Shown here: one piece after another, positions 7,122 to 43,038 of the stretch
How the letters are laid out: every line of letters starts with the position of its first letter
Position numbering within the stretch: the stretch's first letter is position 1
Origin: Trametopsis cervina
Taxonomy: Eukaryota; Basidiomycota; Agaricomycetes; Polyporales; Irpicaceae
DNA length: 64,000 nucleotides
Direction: 5' to 3'
NCBI GenBank assembly: GCA_022385755.1
Contig: MU278358.1
Span: 139,133-203,132 of the forward strand
Program-made: the position numbers and the translations under genes
Notes under the pieces: generated by a model
Databases searched by the model: none
The model's input: the letters and a program-made list of their open reading frames with translations, nothing else
Told to the model about the DNA's origin: nothing

Positions 7122-8845
7122 TTTTTCTTTCTTTGGTTGCTTTTTCAAAGGACTCGAGATCTCTCTCCCACTGCGCCCATCACGAACTTCACGAACGCCA
7201 ATGTGTCATTACGCTAATGCTCCCACGTTTTCCACAGTATATCAACCGTAAGTTATGTTTTCAGAATGTACACTAGTCTCTTTACTATTCAATGTTTCTG
7301 TGATCCACTTTTACCCGCATTTCTATTTGCAAACTTGTCACCGCCGGCAGCTAGCTACAGTAGCCCGCTCAGTGCGAGAGCTCTCCTGACACGAAGATAG
7401 CTTGGAAATCTACGTAAAGGCACAGCTCGGTGTATCCGGGACCGTGGCTCGATTGCTGCGACGAACATCGTAAGATCCGTCGTTACTTCAAGATAGTCAC
7501 GGGTCGCACTCGGGTCGCCCATACGGCTTCTTGTGTGGTGCCCTTTTGACTGAATACTCCCTTCCTTGATTTTTCTGGGTCTCAAGTAAAATATGCACGA
7601 CTTTGATGGAATTGACCAATGTTGTTGGAACGTTCATGTTATGATTTCATCTTTACCATCCGGCGGCCGCTCGGCCTAGGTCGATGCACTGCATGACGTC
7701 GAAGCGGAACTGAAGGGAACCATTCGCGCGCGATTTTACATTTGTCCTACAGCCCTCATGCCGATAAACGGTGAGCTGCGATGGGTCCGCAACTCCATCC
7801 ATCCAGACCATTCGAAGGAGAGACTTTGGGCGCATCTCTGGATGGACCAGAATCATATTCAGTCGGGCCGGCTTACAGAGAGCTGATGTCCCCTTGCTTG
7901 ACAAGGGTTCTGGTGGTGTCTTATTGTCAGCGCTAAACTCACCGGAATATGCCGTCACCGGTTATGGTAGCATAGCCCAGTTTTACTGTCCTTCAACCAG
8001 CTTTGAATTCTTTTCGACAGGTGACAATATTCACAGGGCGCGTGCAGCAGCTGGCCGGAGTGCCGACAGGCACGAAGGCCTGCTGCAGTGCGCGCCACTT
8101 CGTTGTACAGTAGGGCCTATTCTTTTTGAATACACTTATAGTGGCTGTAACTTGTACAAATAGAATGCCACCCCGCCTTTCGTAAGTAACATTTCATTGA
8201 AAACATAGTTAGCATTTATTGTAGGTCAAGCAAGGGTTTTGCCGACGCAGGCGGCGCTCCCCGAGTTGACATATCCAGATTTCTATCTAAGCACGGTTCT
8301 CCCAGCGTTCCCTATTGGCGTTCCGACGTGGTGTGAGCACCGGATACAAAGAGCAGCGTGCGGTGGTAGATAGAAGAGCGTGGCTGTACGTGCACGAGCT
8401 GCCTCTATAATAATACAGCGTGTCAATCGTGATGCGTAGAGTCCAGGCCATATAATTTTTGACATTACTGTATTCAATACGACGAGCCAGGAACAGGGAG
8501 AGAAGGTAGATCGGCAGAGAAAAAGATGTTTCATGGCGGAAAAACTTGTAATCCTCGAGGCAGCATCGGCTGTTCTCCTGGCACCGTAAGTTGTGTAATT
8601 TCATTTGGGTTACCTCAGTCTGCAGCTTGGAGGCTGCGACCACCGATGACCGCCGTCACAGAACGTGTTGGGGCCAGTGACGTCGTGTGACAGATGCAGA
8701 TGGATAGTCACGCGCGCTCAGATAGTCCACTTTTATTAATTTTATAGCTGATCTCCTCTGATCGGCAGTGCCCGCCCAGGCATAAGAGTCCCTCCAGCTC
8801 CCAAAGCGCTCCTCATCCTCTCCTTTCTTCAGTACCTTCATCACC
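7122..8845. other. Intergenic region between GCN2 and cyclophilin
   Basis: About 1.7 kb holding the GCN2 3' UTR and the cyclophilin promoter. No recognised gene. One minus-strand ORF at 7653-7958 is listed separately as a weak candidate. The other ORFs (7355-7585, 7771-8163, 8283-8643) overlap it or have random composition. Confidence 0.45.
7653..7958 (-). CDS. Possible small hypothetical ORF
   Basis: An open frame of about 100 residues on the minus strand, containing RPKSLLRMVWMDGVADPS and ending ...FDVMQCIDLGRAAAGW. Composition and hydrophobic spacing in the second half resemble a folded protein better than the neighbouring ORFs do. No family is recognised, the start codon is not ATG in this frame, and no upstream exon was found. 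It may be chance or a relic. Confidence 0.18.
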   Translation of the reverse strand: MTAYSGEFSADNKTPPEPLSSKGTSALCKPARLNMILVHPEMRPKSLLRMVWMDGVADPSQLTVYRHEGCRTNVKSRANGSLQFRFDVMQCIDLGRAAAGW

Positions 8846-24423: not shown

Positions 24424-26320
24424 CTACACGACACCAACGCTCTCTCTATGATCCAATGGAGTCGATCCCGAACTGACCGTCTTGAACGTCGCAAGCTCAA
24501 CAGGTACGAACCCCCATATGCGTCTACTCAGCCTCGTGCGTCCGCCGCCTCCGCCTGCGCTGCCGTCCTCAGAATCAAGCGTCGTGGTGCCGGGACCCGT
24601 CGTGAACTCCATCGAGCTGTCCAACGTGCTGCCCGCGCTCGTCCCGCCGAGGGTCGTCGCGAAGATGTCGGTGTTTTGCGCGGCGGTCCGGTGCAGGTTT
24701 AGCATTAGGCGGGACATCATCGTGACGGATATGCTGTGCGGAGGGGTATTAGTGGGAAGGGAAGGGGGAGGAGGGCAGGGGAAGACTTACTCGGAGGAGA
24801 GGGTTGAGAGGGTGCCGCGCAGGACGGGCTGGAGGCGGGCGTTACGGGTTTAGAGGGTGGAAATGGCAGAGGGACTTACGGGACAGACCTGTAGGGAGAC
24901 GTTTAGTCGAAGTCGAAGGGAAAGATGCGGTAGGAAAGACGGACTCACGTAGTACGTGATGACATTCGCACCCTGCGCGAGCACCATGACTCTGTGCGCA
25001 GCGTGAGGATCAGCTCGTTAAATGCGTTCTGGAGGTAAATGCGCACGCACCCAAAATACATAGCACCTGCCGTGAACAAATTGGTTAGTCTCGCGAAAAC
25101 TCGCCTACCGAGTCACCGTCGGACGTACCGTCTCGCACAATGAGGCTCACCAAGTTCGCCCGGCCGGTGAAGCCATGGCTGTTGCGCTCCTTGTATGTTT
25201 TCGCGGCGATGAGAATGAAGATGAGCGAGTCAAACGTGAAGAGGGCTTCCCACGCGACGGCGATGTCTGTCGTTCGTTGGTAAGAGGTCGATCATAAAAC
25301 AGATTATGTGCTCCAAAAAAGCCAACGTACGGATGGCGCTGCGGATGCGTAAGCAGCATGCCTCGGCGGTCAGTCAGGACTTGTGTACTCACGTCTCTTT
25401 TGATGACGAGAACTGGCAACCTTCAGCTATTGATATCCCTGACGTCTGGCCCGTGACGGCCCACTACAGCGCGCCGCCGTAAGGCGCGAGTTATAGCAGA
25501 GCTTCAGTAAACGTACCGCAGCCACCCCGATCAGCGTGAGAGCTACAGAAATCACAGCCGTCGCGATCCGTCGGTTCCTACCGTACAGTGCATATATGCG
25601 AAGGAACTGTATCGCTGCAGGGGGAGAGGGTGGTATAAATCTGCACATCTCGGGTGGGACGTGTGCCCGACACACCTGCAACGATAACTTGGGTCGCCAT
25701 TACGCCTAACTGCCTCCAAAACGAGTAACGCGAGCATCTGTTGAACGAAAAATTCAGCGGCTGGTGTTTCGAAGTCGGAAGTGATTGCATGCGCACGCCT
25801 GTCGATAGTCAGATTAGTTTGAGCGCGAATGAACAGAAGGAAAAGAGATCACTTCTGTGGAATGATATTTTGAAAAGTTCCCGCCGAGGACTGCAATACC
25901 CTAGAGGAGGGAGACGTGTCGGTGAGTGGTGCCGAACCGGCACATTACAGGAATGAATACGTACGACGAGAAAAGCAAAGTAGCGATTGACCAAGAACAG
26001 TATCGAGGCACCGGAGCGCGGATTCCTCCATATGTGCCTATACTCCTCGCCAAATGTGATGAGGTAGTCGTAGTAGAGCACCGCTGTCCGAAGGCGCTGT
26101 GGTCAATGCTACTGTATGCATTCTCCGGTACGAACAAGCCGTGCGCTCACTCAAACCCGCCAGATGGCAAAAGTTGTCGATGTACCTGCGGCGCGACACA
26201 CTGTCAAACACAAATACGACTGACAGGCCAGGGTCGGATTCTGCTGCTTCCGGTTATCACTCACAGCTGGTCCCGAGGAAAATCCTCCTCTGAGGTGGAA
26301 AGCACGTCGCGGGTGTGCAT
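24424..26320 (-). CDS. DUF6533 seven-helix membrane protein, copy A
   Basis: Agaricomycete-specific multi-spanning membrane protein; its function is unknown, and a receptor-like role is only a guess from its topology. Fifteen exons were traced (26265-26320, 26151-26185, 25965-26083, 25853-25900, 25797-25798, 25676-25737, 25517-25614, 25393-25463, 25331-25338, 25129-25266, 25051-25066, a 43-nt exon, 24880-24888, a 38-nt exon, 24424-24733). They sum to 1053 nt and 350 aa with no internal stop. Landmarks: VLYYDYLITFGEEYRHIW (the DUF6533 signature), NRYFAFLVGIAVLGGNFSKY, CSRYSFWRQLGVMATQVIVA, FLRIYALYGRNRR, HIAVAWEALFTFDSLIFIL, and SRLMLNLHRTAA in the C-terminal exon. Internal exons of 2, 8, 16 and 9 nt are needed. 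The tandem partner is copy B. Confidence 0.85.
24880..24888 (-). other. 9-nt internal exon, DUF6533 copy A
   Basis: GTCTGTCCC (Val-Cys-Pro) sits between an AG acceptor (CTACAG) and a GTAAGT donor. The same 9-nt exon occurs in copy B (27749-27757) and, as ATCTTTCCA, in copy C (41627-41635). Confidence 0.75.
25051..25066 (-). other. 16-nt internal exon, DUF6533 copy A
   Basis: A 16-nt exon encoding most of Gly-Ala-Met-Tyr-Phe-Gly, bounded by AG and GTGCGT. The homologous exons in copies B (27915-27930) and C (41786-41801) are also 16 nt. Confidence 0.75.
25331..25338 (-). other. 8-nt internal exon, DUF6533 copy A
   Basis: CGCCATCC between CCGCAG and GTACGT supplies Ala-Ile and joins ...SSKET to HIAVAWEAL. 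The identical exon is at 28188-28195 in copy B, and TGCCATTC is at 42057-42064 in copy C. Confidence 0.8.
25797..25798 (-). other. Predicted 2-nt internal exon, DUF6533 copy A
   Basis: Two bases (GC on the coding strand) lie between a CGACAG acceptor and a GTGCGC donor. The preceding 48-nt exon (25853-25900) ends in phase 0, while the following exon (25676-25737) needs two bases before it to read CSRYSFWRQ. Only this two-base exon, giving an Ala codon GCA, restores the frame. Keeping either flanking intron gives a stop. Confidence 0.65.
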
Positions 26321-27218: not shown

Positions 27219-29164
27219 CTACACAACGCCCACGCCCTCTCTATAATCCAACGGCGACGTCCCCGAACTCACACTCTTGAACGTCGTGAGCTCAACAGGC
27301 ACGAACCCCCACATCCGTCTACTCGCCCTCGAGCGCCCAGACCCATGGTGCAGCCCGCCGTCATCATTTTCCGAGTCGAGCGTCGTCGTACCGGGGCGCG
27401 TCGTGAATTCCATGGAACTGTCGGATGTGTACGCGCTTGTCCCGTCGAGGGTGGTTGCGAAGATGTCCGTGTTCTCGGCGGCGGTCCGGTGCAGGTTTAG
27501 CATTAGACGGGACATCATCGTTACGGATATGCTGGCGGGAGGTGGGTCAGTTGGTTGGAGGGGAGAGGGAGGGAGGGGAGGAGGGGAGAGGGAGGGAGGG
27601 GAGGAGGGGAGAGGGAGGGAGGGGAGGAGGGGAGAGGAGGAGGGGAGGGGAGGACTTACTCGGAGGAGAGGGTTGAGAGGGAGCCGCGGAGGACGGGCTG
27701 GGGGTGGCTGTTAGGGTGCAGTAGGCTGGAAATGTCAGAGGGACTTACGGGACAGACCTGTAAGGATGCGGTTAGCGGGAGGAAAAGATACGGTTGGAAA
27801 GGGAGACTCACGTAAAACGTGATGACATTAGCACCCTGCGCGAGAACCATTACTCTACGCGCGGCGTGAGTATCAACATCAACTCGGTAAATCTGTTCTG
27901 GGGGGAATCCTTACCCGAAATACATAGCACCTACGGCGGGAAGATTTGTCAGTCTCACGAGAACAAATCTGCAGAGTGGTCATCGAACGTACCGTCTCGT
28001 ACAATGAGGTTGACCAAATTCGCTCGGCCGGTAAAGTCGTAATTGGCGCGCTCTTTGTATGTTTTCGCGAGGGTGAGGATGAAGATGAGCGAATCAAACG
28101 TGAAGAGAGCTTCCCAGGCGACGGCGATGTCTGTCGACCGTGGGGATTAGTTACTACACCGGATATGTGGCCGCAAAAATAACATACGGATGGCGCTGTG
28201 TGTACATTAGTAATATGCTCCAGCGGTCAGTTTGAGAGTATGGTACTCACGTTTGTTTCGATGACGAGAACTGACATCCCTCCACCAATGATATCCCCGA
28301 CGTCTGGCCCGTGACGGCCCACTACGCCCGGATGAGCCTGTGGATTATGGCAGAGCTGAACCACACGTACCGCAGACACACCGATCAGTGTGAGAGCCAC
28401 TGAGATGACGGCCGTCGCGATCCGGCGGTTCCTACCGTATAGCGCATATATGCGTAGGAACTGTATCGCTGGGGAAATAGGGTGGTGAGGATCTGGGAAT
28501 TTGGGGTGGGATGTGTGCCGTGGACGCACCTGCGACTATCACTTGGGTTGCCATGATCGCTAGCTGTCTCCAGAACGAGTAATGTTCGCATCTATTCAGA
28601 GGGACTCCTGTGAGTTTTGTTTCGACGGCAGGAATTATTGTGTGCGTACGCCTGTTAGAGCCAAACAGTCAGATCGGGTCCCTCGCGCAAGAAATAGCAG
28701 GAAAGAGGAATTACGTCTGTAGAATGGTATTTTGAAAAGTTCCCGCCGAGGACAGCGATACCCTGGAGGGGGAAGACACGTCGGTGAGTTGTGGAAAGGC
28801 CAGTGCGTTATGGGAGAACACGTACCACGAAGAATGCAAAGTAACGATTTACTAGGAACAGTATCGAGGCCCCCGAGCGCGGATTCCTCCATATGTGTCT
28901 ATACTCTTCGCTAAAGGTGATAAGGTGGTCGTAATAAAGCACCGCTGCACGACATCCCTCTGGTCAACACTCTGCATTTTCTGGGACTAATATCTTGTAT
29001 GCTCACTTAGACCCGCCAGTCGGCAAAAGTTGTCGATGTACCTGCGGAGCGACGCGCTGTCAAACACGACTGACACGCCAGGGTCCAATTCTGCCTCCGC
29101 GCACTCACAGCTGGTTCCGCGGAAAATCCTCTTCAGTGGTCGAAAGCACGTCGCGGGCGTGCAT
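27219..29164 (-). CDS. DUF6533 seven-helix membrane protein, copy B
   Basis: Tandem duplicate of copy A with the same exon plan. The ATG at 29164 opens MHARDVLSTTEEDFPRNQ. The signature is LYYDHLITFSEEYRHIW, followed by NRYFAFFVGIAVLGGNF, CEHYSFWRQLAIMATQVIVA, FLRIYALYGRNRRIATA, and the C-terminal exon with SRLMLNLHRTAAENTD, ending at 27219. Tiny internal exons are conserved: 2 nt (28650-28651), 8 nt (28188-28195), 16 nt (27915-27930) and 9 nt (27749-27757). The last intron carries an expanded polypurine minisatellite (27558-27650). The coding sequence appears intact. The C-terminal tail after the last helix has diverged from copy A more than the membrane part has. Function unknown. Confidence 0.85.
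27558..27650 (+). repeat. Polypurine minisatellite, period about 24 bases
   Basis: At least three tandem units built from GGGGAGAGGGAGGGAGGGGA plus GGAG on the plus strand. It lies inside the last intron of DUF6533 copy B. On the transcript strand it is a long CT-rich tract just downstream of the penultimate exon. Copy A has only a short GA-rich stretch in the same place. Confidence 0.85.
28650..28651 (-). other. Predicted 2-nt internal exon, DUF6533 copy B
   Basis: GC between TAACAG and GTACGC, in the same place as in copy A. The flanking introns would be 63 and 58 nt. It turns phase 0 (exon ending in Ser-Thr-Asp) into the phase needed for CEHYSFWRQ. Retention of the downstream intron gives an in-frame TAG. 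Confidence 0.65.
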
Positions 29165-41138: not shown

Positions 41139-43038
41139 CTAAACGTCATCGATGGTTTCCCTCTCCCAACGAGGCTCGTTAATTGTACCCAAGCCGACTA
41201 CCCTGCTTTGATATGTTGCCAGTTCTACGCCTCCAGGAACAGAAATGTGGCCAGGTATACCTCTGTCTACCCTTGATTGGATCGAACGCAGCCCGGTTTT
41301 AGGATCAAAGACGGAGTCTTCGACACTAGAATTGGCGGCAAACTCCACCACGCCGTCCATGGTGAAAACATCTGTCGGACCTAGTGTTGTACCGAGGACG
41401 TTGACATCTCGTGCGGCGGTCCGATGCAAGTTAAGCATCAGTCGGGACATCATGCTTACAGAGATTCTAGATTTCCAGATTCGTGACATATATGTAAGTC
41501 ACTGCGGAGAGGAGGAAAGGAGGAAGGAGCGTACGCGCTAGCCATCGTTGACAGTGTTCCTCGGAGGACGGGCTGAAGGCAAGAAGGAGTCAAGCTAGGA
41601 CTACAAAGCCGTGTGATGATACTGACTGGAAAGATCTGTACCAACTTGTCAGCAACCGTAGAGATCCATCATAATTTCATCATAGACTCACATAGAATGT
41701 CAGCACATTGGCCCCCTGCGCAATCACCATGATCCTGCGCGTAACGTCAGAGTCAGCCGCACAAATGCTCGAGACTGCAAATTACCCGAAATAGATTGCA
41801 CCTTTGCAAGTGATAATCTGTCAGCCGCATGTAACGGGCAGTAGCAAAACACTGTAACTTACCATCCCTAACAATGAGGTTCACTAAGTTTGTTTTCCCA
41901 GTGAAGTCGTACCGAAGTCGTTCTCTGTACGTTTTGGTGAGAGTGAGGATGAATATGAGGGAGTCAAAAGTGAAGAGAGCTTCCCAGCCCACGGCGATAT
42001 CTGTTGTATGTCCAATGGGGTTATTTTAATATGCTGCAAGCTCTTTGGAAACGTACGAATGGCACTGGGTCCGTGTTTATCAGAATATGAGAGTGAGTTT
42101 GAGCATTTCGACTTACGACTCCTTCGATGAGGCGAATTGACAACCCTCTGCTAATGATATTCCCGAGGACTGGCCTGAGACGGCCCACTATCATAGGCCA
42201 GATTCAGTGCCCATATAGGGTTATGACGGGGCTACAGGCAACTCACGGCAGAAATGCCAACCAAAACAACAGATACAGAGACTACGAAGAACGCGACGCG
42301 CTTCTTCCTACCATACAGCGCAAATACACGTAGGAACTGGACAACTGAAGAGAAACGAGACAATGAGGATGCTCAGCAACCTGTCTGAGGAAATCTCGTG
42401 TGACGTACCTCCGACTATAACTTCTATAACTATGATTGCCACTTGTCTCCAGAATGAGTAATGGGAGCAGCTGACCGAGTGTCAGTCGTAGTTGATAGAA
42501 ACCTATTTGGATGCACATACGTCTGTCGTTATCACACCTATCAGCGCGTTCCCTCACAATAACGGAATTGATGAAGGACTCACTGCGATAGACTTATAGT
42601 GTGAGAAATTTCCCCCAAGGACTACGAAACCCTTGAGATAGTGGCCGCGTCAGTGAGCTCGAGGACTACGCATCACAATATGGTGTACTCACGACCAAGA
42701 ATGGAAAGTAACGGTTAATGATAAAAAGGATTGAGGCTCCTGACAGAGGAGCCCGACGCCAGATGTGCTGGTACTCCTCGTCGAATGTGATAAAATGGTC
42801 GTAATATAGGATTGCTGCGCAGGGAAGAATAATTAGTCGTACGTATGGTACTCGTGACCAAGTGGTGTGCTTACTTATGCCGGCAAGACGGCAGAAGTTG
42901 TCGATGAATCTATATATTCACACAAAATCAGTCTGCTGACTTTTACGACGACGAGAGGTCAAAGTATCTGCGCACCACTCACAGCTGTGATTTCGGAAAC
43001 TCTTCCTCCGCACCTGAAATGACGTCTCGCCCGTACAT
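41139..43038 (-). CDS. DUF6533 seven-helix membrane protein, copy C (dispersed paralog)
   Basis: Same exon plan as copies A and B but more diverged. The ATG at 43038 opens MYGRDVISGAEEEFPKSQL. Landmarks: LYYDHFITFDEEYQHIW, NRYFPFLVGFVVLGGNFSHY, CSHYSFWRQVAIIVIEVIVG, FLRVFALYGRKKR, HIAVGWEALFTFDSLIFIL, SRLMLNLHRTAARDVNV, ending at 41139. Conserved tiny exons: 2 nt (42521-42522, AC), 8 nt (42057-42064), 16 nt (41786-41801) and 9 nt (41627-41635). A TATA-like TGTATATAG on the plus strand (about 43168) gives a TATA box about 130 bases upstream of the start. It lies 12 kb from the tandem pair. Function unknown. Confidence 0.83.
42521..42522 (-). other. Predicted 2-nt internal exon, DUF6533 copy C
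   Basis: AC between CGACAG and the strong donor GTATGT. Flanking introns are 61 and 50 nt, and the second has a textbook CGACTGAC branch site. It gives a Thr codon ACC and joins ...KSIA to CSHYSFWRQ in frame. An alternative 17-nt exon using an upstream AG would contain an in-frame TGA. Confidence 0.65.

What the first reader, a model, noticed from the sequence alone, without database searches (positions are those of the whole stretch)
25676..25900. Predicted 2-nt internal exon conserved in three DUF6533 paralogs
In all three DUF6533 genes the exon coding ...GGNFS-Y-S (48 nt, ends in phase 0) must join an exon coding C-x-Y-SFWRQ that starts with one leftover base. A direct join breaks the frame in every copy. 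Between them lies a candidate two-base exon: CGACAG|GC|GTGCGC (25797-25798), TAACAG|GC|GTACGC (28650-28651) and CGACAG|AC|GTATGT (42521-42522). The flanking introns would be 54/59, 63/58 and 61/50 nt, all normal here. Keeping the second intron in A and B puts stops in frame, and the only longer alternative in C contains a TGA. With the 2-nt exon, the 15 exons of copy A total 1053 nt, exactly 351 codons. Exons this short are hard to explain by exon-definition splicing, and standard gene finders would miss them, so many DUF6533 models may be wrong at this point.
Basis: partly seen in the sequence, partly recalled or inferred. Interest (0 to 1): 0.88.

Follow-up and report, generated by a model that had tools for sequence, protein, structure and literature searches.

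The report
Two-base exon in a fungal gene family
Three neighbouring membrane-protein genes of a wood-rotting fungus most likely carry a working exon only two bases long, and many distant relatives in the same genome appear to carry it at the same codon, a spot where deposited gene models often go wrong.

Summary
In copies A, B and C, exon 4 (48 nt) and exon 6 (62 nt) can be joined in frame in only one shared way: a 2-nt exon (GC, GC, AC) between two ordinary GT-AG introns. With it all three genes give 15-exon open frames; without it they stop at codon 119-120. It adds the single residue that undisturbed close homologs have before a conserved Cys at TM3. Other paralogs have only the first or only the second intron. 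In other fungi 22 of 87 genome-derived and 0 of 24 RNA-like models are disturbed here. One of five T. cervina models seen matches two predicted 2-nt exons exactly; four go wrong here. No RNA reads were available. New member of a known kind (1-nt exons in plants and Fusarium), unusual for its spread.

The parts
24424..26320 (-). Gene A, DUF6533 protein, 15 exons, 351 codons with stop
   Evidence: Exon model; DUF6533 60.8 bits over cut-off 24.1
25853..25900 (-). A exon 4 (48 nt, ends in phase 0; GIAVLGGNFSKYHSTE)
   Evidence: All 5 A/B differences at third codon positions; profile match
25799..25852 (-). A intron 4 (54 nt, GTGATC..CGACAG; weak donor)
25797..25798 (-). A 2-nt exon GC (with the next A gives codon GCA, Ala)
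25738..25796 (-). A intron 5 (59 nt, GTGCGC..CAACAG)
25676..25737 (-). A exon 6 (62 nt; conserved Cys and TM3)
27219..29164 (-). Gene B, DUF6533 protein, 15 exons, 352 codons with stop
   Evidence: 60.6 bits
28715..28762 (-). B exon 4 (48 nt)
28652..28714 (-). B intron 4 (63 nt, GTAATT..TAACAG)
28650..28651 (-). B 2-nt exon GC (codon GCA, Ala)
28592..28649 (-). B intron 5 (58 nt, GTACGC..GAATAG)
28530..28591 (-). B exon 6 (62 nt)
41139..43038 (-). Gene C, DUF6533 protein, 15 exons, 358 codons with stop
   Evidence: 60.9 bits
42584..42631 (-). C exon 4 (48 nt)
42523..42583 (-). C intron 4 (61 nt, GTGAGT..CGACAG)
42521..42522 (-). C 2-nt exon AC (codon ACC, Thr)
42471..42520 (-). C intron 5 (50 nt, GTATGT..GGTCAG)
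42409..42470 (-). C exon 6 (62 nt)
25331..25338 (-). A 8-nt exon (phase 2 to 1), near the place where other paralogs have a candidate second 2-nt exon
28188..28195 (-). B 8-nt exon
42057..42064 (-). C 8-nt exon

Best explanation
Each gene has a constitutive 2-nt internal exon between two short ordinary GT-AG introns. It supplies two bases of the codon just before the conserved Cys at the start of TM3. It arose because two separate introns, one in phase 0 and one in phase 2 of the same codon, came to sit 2 nt apart in an ancestor of many DUF6533 genes, and it has been kept because losing it shifts the frame before TM3-TM7. Splicing most likely works by intron definition (introns of about 58 and 61 nt), one intron after the other, since AG and GT 2 nt apart leave little room for both sets of factors at once. 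Shown here: sequence, frames, homolog length, recurrence, controls. Inferred: splicing in RNA, constitutive use, order of removal, ancestry.
For: Among the solutions listed, only the 2-nt exon is common to A, B and C, and it gives full open frames. Aligner choice in 12 of 12 settings each; barring exons under 3 nt costs 15.5, 21.3 and 11.9 bits. The gap between exons 4 and 6 is 115/123/113 nt, while 35 of the 36 other introns of the three genes are 49-79 nt. Same exon at the same profile position in 33 of 57 genes; 32 of 33 are still called in local context; shuffle expectation 1.75; 25-28 genes remain in three settings with the residue scores at columns 79-86 set to zero. Outside this site and site 2, six exons of 2 nt or less in all 57 genes. 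Flanking introns look ordinary: mean lengths 57.9 and 61.3 against 57.6 nt, acceptors 5.3 and 5.8 against 5.1 bits, first donors 7.6 and second 6.1 against 7.2 bits (second lower, p 0.03). First-only (L055, L056, L060, L062) and second-only (L013, L029, L037) introns at the same positions. One residue before the Cys in undisturbed homologs, RNA-like ones included. Deposited model P0122 (paralog L034) carries the predicted residues at two 2-nt exons, and no single GT/GC-AG intron gives them.
Against: No RNA reads seen. A's first donor GTGATC is weak. A and C have single-intron alternatives that keep the frame, 6 to 13 residues longer than the 2-nt-exon product or, in one C case, 4 shorter. Four of five T. 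cervina models seen do not carry it. 18 to 37 of 57 genes are called depending on settings, and C drops out at the harshest intron cost. Long gaps are not unique to this site in my parses: 63 of 480 introns elsewhere in the 57 genes are 100 nt or more, some perhaps misparses. 56 of 87 genome-derived models of other species class as clean or nearly so here, so many relatives may lack one of the introns; the disturbed ones show a hard junction, not a 2-nt exon as such. Paralogs are not independent samples.
Confidence: 0.92

Rival explanations
1. One longer intron with another donor or acceptor keeps the frame and changes the loop peptide; there is no 2-nt exon.
For: A: donor GTGATC with acceptor CACCAG, 92 nt, adding PLNFSFNR; C: donor GTGAGG, 87 nt. 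Deposited P0007 uses an upstream acceptor giving VPLNR in B.
Against: No such GT-AG solution in B, and none homologous among A, B and C. Changes the length where undisturbed close homologs have one residue. The free aligner chose it in none of 36 runs with GC donors also allowed. Does not explain 33 paralogs with AG-NN-GT at one codon.
Confidence: 0.04
2. The copies are decaying and the frame break is real, or the deposited shifted-frame model of A is right.
For: Deposited P0001 reads exon 4 in another frame; a like parse without a stop exists in C when tiny exons are barred.
Against: All five A/B differences in exon 4 are at third codon positions of the proposed frame; that frame keeps 15 of 16 residues A to B and 10 of 16 A to C, the P0001 frame 11 of 15 and 3 of 15. 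All three genes are otherwise complete.
Confidence: 0.02
3. A spliceosomal twin intron (stwintron): a nested internal intron interrupts a splice signal of one external intron and nothing is kept between.
For: Double-length gap with internal AG and GT; stwintrons are known in fungi (listing and abstract starts).
Against: A GT donor follows the 2 nt whole in A, B and C, and two bases must stay in the mRNA for the frame; the two introns occur separately in other paralogs.
Confidence: 0.02

Closest known systems
1-nt exon of CYP621A P450 genes, Fusarium (PMC12940212; abstract, introduction and discussion read)
   Same: Ultra-short exon inferred from frame and conserved protein length, between GT-AG introns, missed by annotation; RNA confirmed there
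   Different: 1 nt, orthologs of one P450 subfamily in one genus; here 2 nt, in many distant paralogs of one genome, without RNA reads so far
1-nt exons of plant APC11 and VPS55 (PMC4674806, PMC8831610; passages read)
   Same: Frame-restoring, deeply conserved, with relatives lacking the flanking introns; successive intron removal proposed for APC11
   Different: Plants, 1 nt; APC11 tested by mutated constructs
Microexons of Phanerochaete chrysosporium P450 genes (PMC1184071; passages read)
   Same: White-rot fungus with 45-55 bp introns and many tiny exons
   Different: Shortest reported there 6 bp
SNB1 of Coprinopsis, a DUF6533 seven-helix protein (PMC10949477; passages read)
   Same: Same domain family
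   Different: Its exon structure was not examined here and is not in the passages seen

Membership tests
Constitutive 1-2 nt microexon | Exon of 1-2 nt between two complete GT-AG introns | tested here: met
   By sequence
Constitutive 1-2 nt microexon | Needed for the reading frame | tested here: met
   Skipping gives a stop at codon 119, 119 and 120
Constitutive 1-2 nt microexon | Conserved beyond chance | tested here: met
Constitutive 1-2 nt microexon | Seen in mature RNA | not testable with these tools
   No reads; indirect support only from P0122 and RNA-like homologs
DUF6533 (PF20151) | Match above Pfam cut-off | tested here: met
   60.8, 60.6 and 60.9 bits against 24.1
Stwintron | Splice signal of an external intron interrupted by an internal intron, nothing kept | tested here: not met
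   Whole donor after the 2 nt and two bases needed for the frame
Recursive splice site (zero-length exon) | AG directly followed by GT | tested here: not met
   Two bases lie between in A, B and C
G-protein-coupled receptor | Structural match to a solved receptor | tested here: inconclusive
   Seven-helix model of homolog P0005 (pLDDT 82.4); best Foldseek E 0.021 to a receptor, none at 0.001 or below

The most novel reading that the evidence does not exclude
DUF6533 genes of mushroom-forming fungi carry, since before the family spread, one and often two constitutive 2-nt exons: one before the TM3 Cys (phase 0 to 2) and one in the TM4-TM5 loop (phase 2 to 1; 8 nt in A, B and C). That would be the largest set of ultra-short exons in one gene family that I came across, and a natural series with none, one or both introns to test how such exons form and are spliced.
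Probability: 0.55. Interest if true: 0.82.

Novelty: new member of a known kind. Interest (0 to 1): 0.72.

Why it matters
In the papers seen, exons of 1-2 nt are reported from few genes, and they are hard to fit to exon definition. Here one genome offers some thirty candidates at one codon, with sister genes holding only the first or only the second intron. That makes formation (two introns gained 2 nt apart) and order of splicing directly testable. It would also explain a recurrent annotation error in a large family of seven-helix membrane proteins that includes the fruiting-body gene SNB1 (PMC10949477): this junction has the most insertions of 3 or more residues of any column among 118 homologs (17; next 5).

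Tried and rejected
Single-intron joins with GT or GC donors were listed for A, B and C and rejected as above. Stwintron and recursive-site readings were rejected. Site 2 (2-nt exon, phase 2 to 1): 15 calls at columns 150-170 (13 at 163-167), of which 9 stood in local context with gains of 0.7 to 5.2 bits, against 0.13 expected from shuffles; L034, which P0122 supports there, is among the 6 that did not stand. Kept as a lead, not a claim. L014, L015 and L018 were called at column 89 with a 44-nt next exon; by eye the acceptor 18 nt upstream gives the usual 62-nt exon; they were left out of the signal statistics. L039 failed in local context. L044 gives a tiny exon in 92 of 150 shuffles, so it is no evidence. 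L024 and L032 were called only with the first splice matrix. The third protein search, with an alignment of 12 paralogs, listed 29 proteins, none named T. cervina. Literature on 2-nt exons: searched an open-licence library only; no listed title or abstract start shows a 2-nt exon in a fungus, but PMC12940212 says that exons of 2-5 bp were reported in Arabidopsis, Drosophila and humans. The structure of P0005 was modelled for placement only: the equivalent residue 81 lies at the start of helix 79-111, beside Cys82, and Cys150 lies between the fourth and fifth helices; a disulfide between them is a guess.

Full report
WHAT IS THERE. The three genes lie on the minus strand. The genome (29.4 Mb, 59 contigs) is probably Trametopsis cervina: the best protein match to A is 95% identical to BDW22DRAFT_178335 of that species (P0001), and contig C34 has the same length, 221,424, as the contig of two T. 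cervina proteins; the contig of P0001 (914,736) and C11 (903,014) differ somewhat. Exons 4 to 13 have the same lengths in A, B and C: 48, 2, 62, 98, 71, 8, 138, 16, 43, 9 nt. Of the other 36 introns, 35 are 49-79 nt and one is 128 nt (last intron of B, with a 23-nt tandem repeat). The stretch between exons 4 and 6 is 115, 123 and 113 nt: twice an intron. A 2-nt exon splits it into 54+59, 63+58 and 61+50 nt.

FRAMES. Exon 4 of A and B differs at five sites, all third codon positions; the frame keeps 15 of 16 residues A to B and 10 of 16 A to C, against 11 of 15 and 3 of 15 in either other frame. Exon 6 carries the conserved Cys and TM3. So the join must add 2 nt modulo 3. Leaving the exon out gives a stop at codon 119, 119 and 120. 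The listing found, with the outer sites fixed, one two-intron solution in A, one in B and three in C (two of them 2-nt exons, one 20 nt); single introns with GT donors 2, 0 and 3, with GC donors 2, 5 and 0. Only the 2-nt exon is shared.

HOMOLOGS. Of 251 proteins found (candidates capped at 7992) the best 120 were listed and aligned. Close homologs whose models are undisturbed have one residue (often Ser, also Val, Gly, Ala) between the end of the exon 4 equivalent and the Cys; the 2-nt exon gives Ala, Ala and Thr. I dropped P0001 and P0007 (T. cervina) and built a profile from the other 118, misannotated models included.

ALIGNER. I wrote a dynamic-programming spliced aligner with that profile and splice matrices from 35 other introns of A, B and C, leaving out the two introns under test. 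It chose the 2-nt exon in 12 of 12 settings for each copy; barring exons under 3 nt cost 15.5, 21.3 and 11.9 bits and for A returned the deposited peptide SSAGTFQNIIPQK.

THE REST OF THE FAMILY. The Pfam search gave 57 places, a lower bound by the tool's note: A, B, C and 54 others, all fetched; some are weak matches. With matrices from 321 introns, 33 of 57 genes have a 2-nt exon, phase 0 to 2, at columns 80-90, 27 of them at column 83; the next exon is 62 nt in 27. The two bases are AG in 13, GC in 5, AC in 4 and others in 11. Composite gaps are 101-161 nt, but 63 of 480 introns elsewhere in these parses are also 100 nt or more. With 150 shuffles per gene, 1.75 genes were expected to show any such exon (0.61 of that from L044) and 0.17 with a gain as large as their own; 32 of 33 are called in local context, with gains of about 5 bits or more in 24. 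Across ten settings 18 to 37 genes are called; with residue scores at columns 79-86 neutral, 25 to 28. The median pairwise identity among these genes is 22% (528 pairs), and they are spread over the tree (FastTree, midpoint-rooted, supports not read), so the exon looks old, though repeated gain is not excluded. Of the 24 genes without a call, L055, L056, L060 and L062 show only the phase-0 intron and L013, L029 and L037 only the phase-2 intron (L062 and L037 have weak donors, L060 a 183-nt intron); L031 has both with 8 nt between; the others have neither or are unresolved.

ANNOTATION ELSEWHERE. Among 118 homologs, insertions of 3 or more residues are most frequent at this junction (17; next 5, at the place of site 2). 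Sorting by source and contig length (my inference: 27 sequences from short jgi/lgn contigs are RNA-like, because a gene with this many introns gives such an open frame only when spliced), 22 of 87 genome-derived and 0 of 24 RNA-like models are disturbed here; at nine other columns it is 0-5 of 82-91 and 0-1 of 23-27. A stricter sort gave 31 of 87 and 1 of 24 (P0074) disturbed, with 7 sequences not covering the place. Five T. cervina models were seen: P0001, P0007, P0121 and P0123 go wrong at this point, P0122 does not (P0123 matched to L051 by eye). P0122 (paralog L034) has the Thr and the site-2 residues that my model predicts through two 2-nt exons; no single GT/GC-AG intron yields them. It differs from my model elsewhere (lacks QTLS, adds AEPIP). 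Whether it rests on RNA is not stated in what I saw.

MECHANISM. The flanking introns look ordinary: mean lengths 57.9 and 61.3 nt against 57.6; donors 7.6 and 6.1 bits against 7.2 (p 0.14 and 0.03); acceptors 5.3 and 5.8 against 5.1 (30 genes, 496 other introns; L014, L015, L018 left out). Intron definition with successive removal is the natural reading, as argued for the Arabidopsis 1-nt exon (PMC4674806, passages). The order is unknown; the slightly weaker second donor hints that intron 4 may go first, which is a guess.

COMPARISON. Similar known cases are the 1-nt exons of plant APC11 and VPS55 (PMC8831610, passages) and of Fusarium CYP621A (PMC12940212, abstract, introduction and discussion; [quoted passage not shown] This is therefore a new member of a known kind, unusual in spread. 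The DUF6533 protein SNB1 of Coprinopsis is predicted to have seven helices (PMC10949477, passages), as does my model of P0005.

LIMITS. No RNA, no DNA of other fungi, one genome. The paralogs are related, so 33 is not 33 independent events.

Noticed in passing
L014, L016, L018, L020, L024, L025, L027, L030, L034, L042, L047, L048, L051 (profile columns 163-167): Candidate second 2-nt exon, phase 2 to 1, before a 132-144 nt exon, near where A, B, C, L052 and L061 have an 8-nt exon; 0.13 genes expected from shuffles but small score gains, and 4 of these 13 fail in local context; P0122 supports it in L034.
   Followed up: partly
25051-25066, 24880-24888 (A) and equivalents in B and C: Other conserved short exons: 16 nt (an exon of that length in 38 of 57 genes) and 9 nt (8 of 57).
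   Followed up: partly
27557-27654: G/A-rich (C/T-rich on the coding strand) tandem repeat inside the last intron of B, which is 128 nt long.
   Followed up: no
27219-29164: The deposited protein P0007 for B lacks the DUF6533 start and departs from my model at several exons, not only at the 2-nt exon.
   Followed up: partly
P0136 (Mycena venus) against P0128: In a distant subfamily of another fungus one deposited model also has a long insertion at the same junction.
   Followed up: no
L025: Sister of L014/L015/L018 with a 120-nt gap and a changed second donor (AT followed by GTTGAG); it may be losing the 2-nt exon.
   Followed up: no
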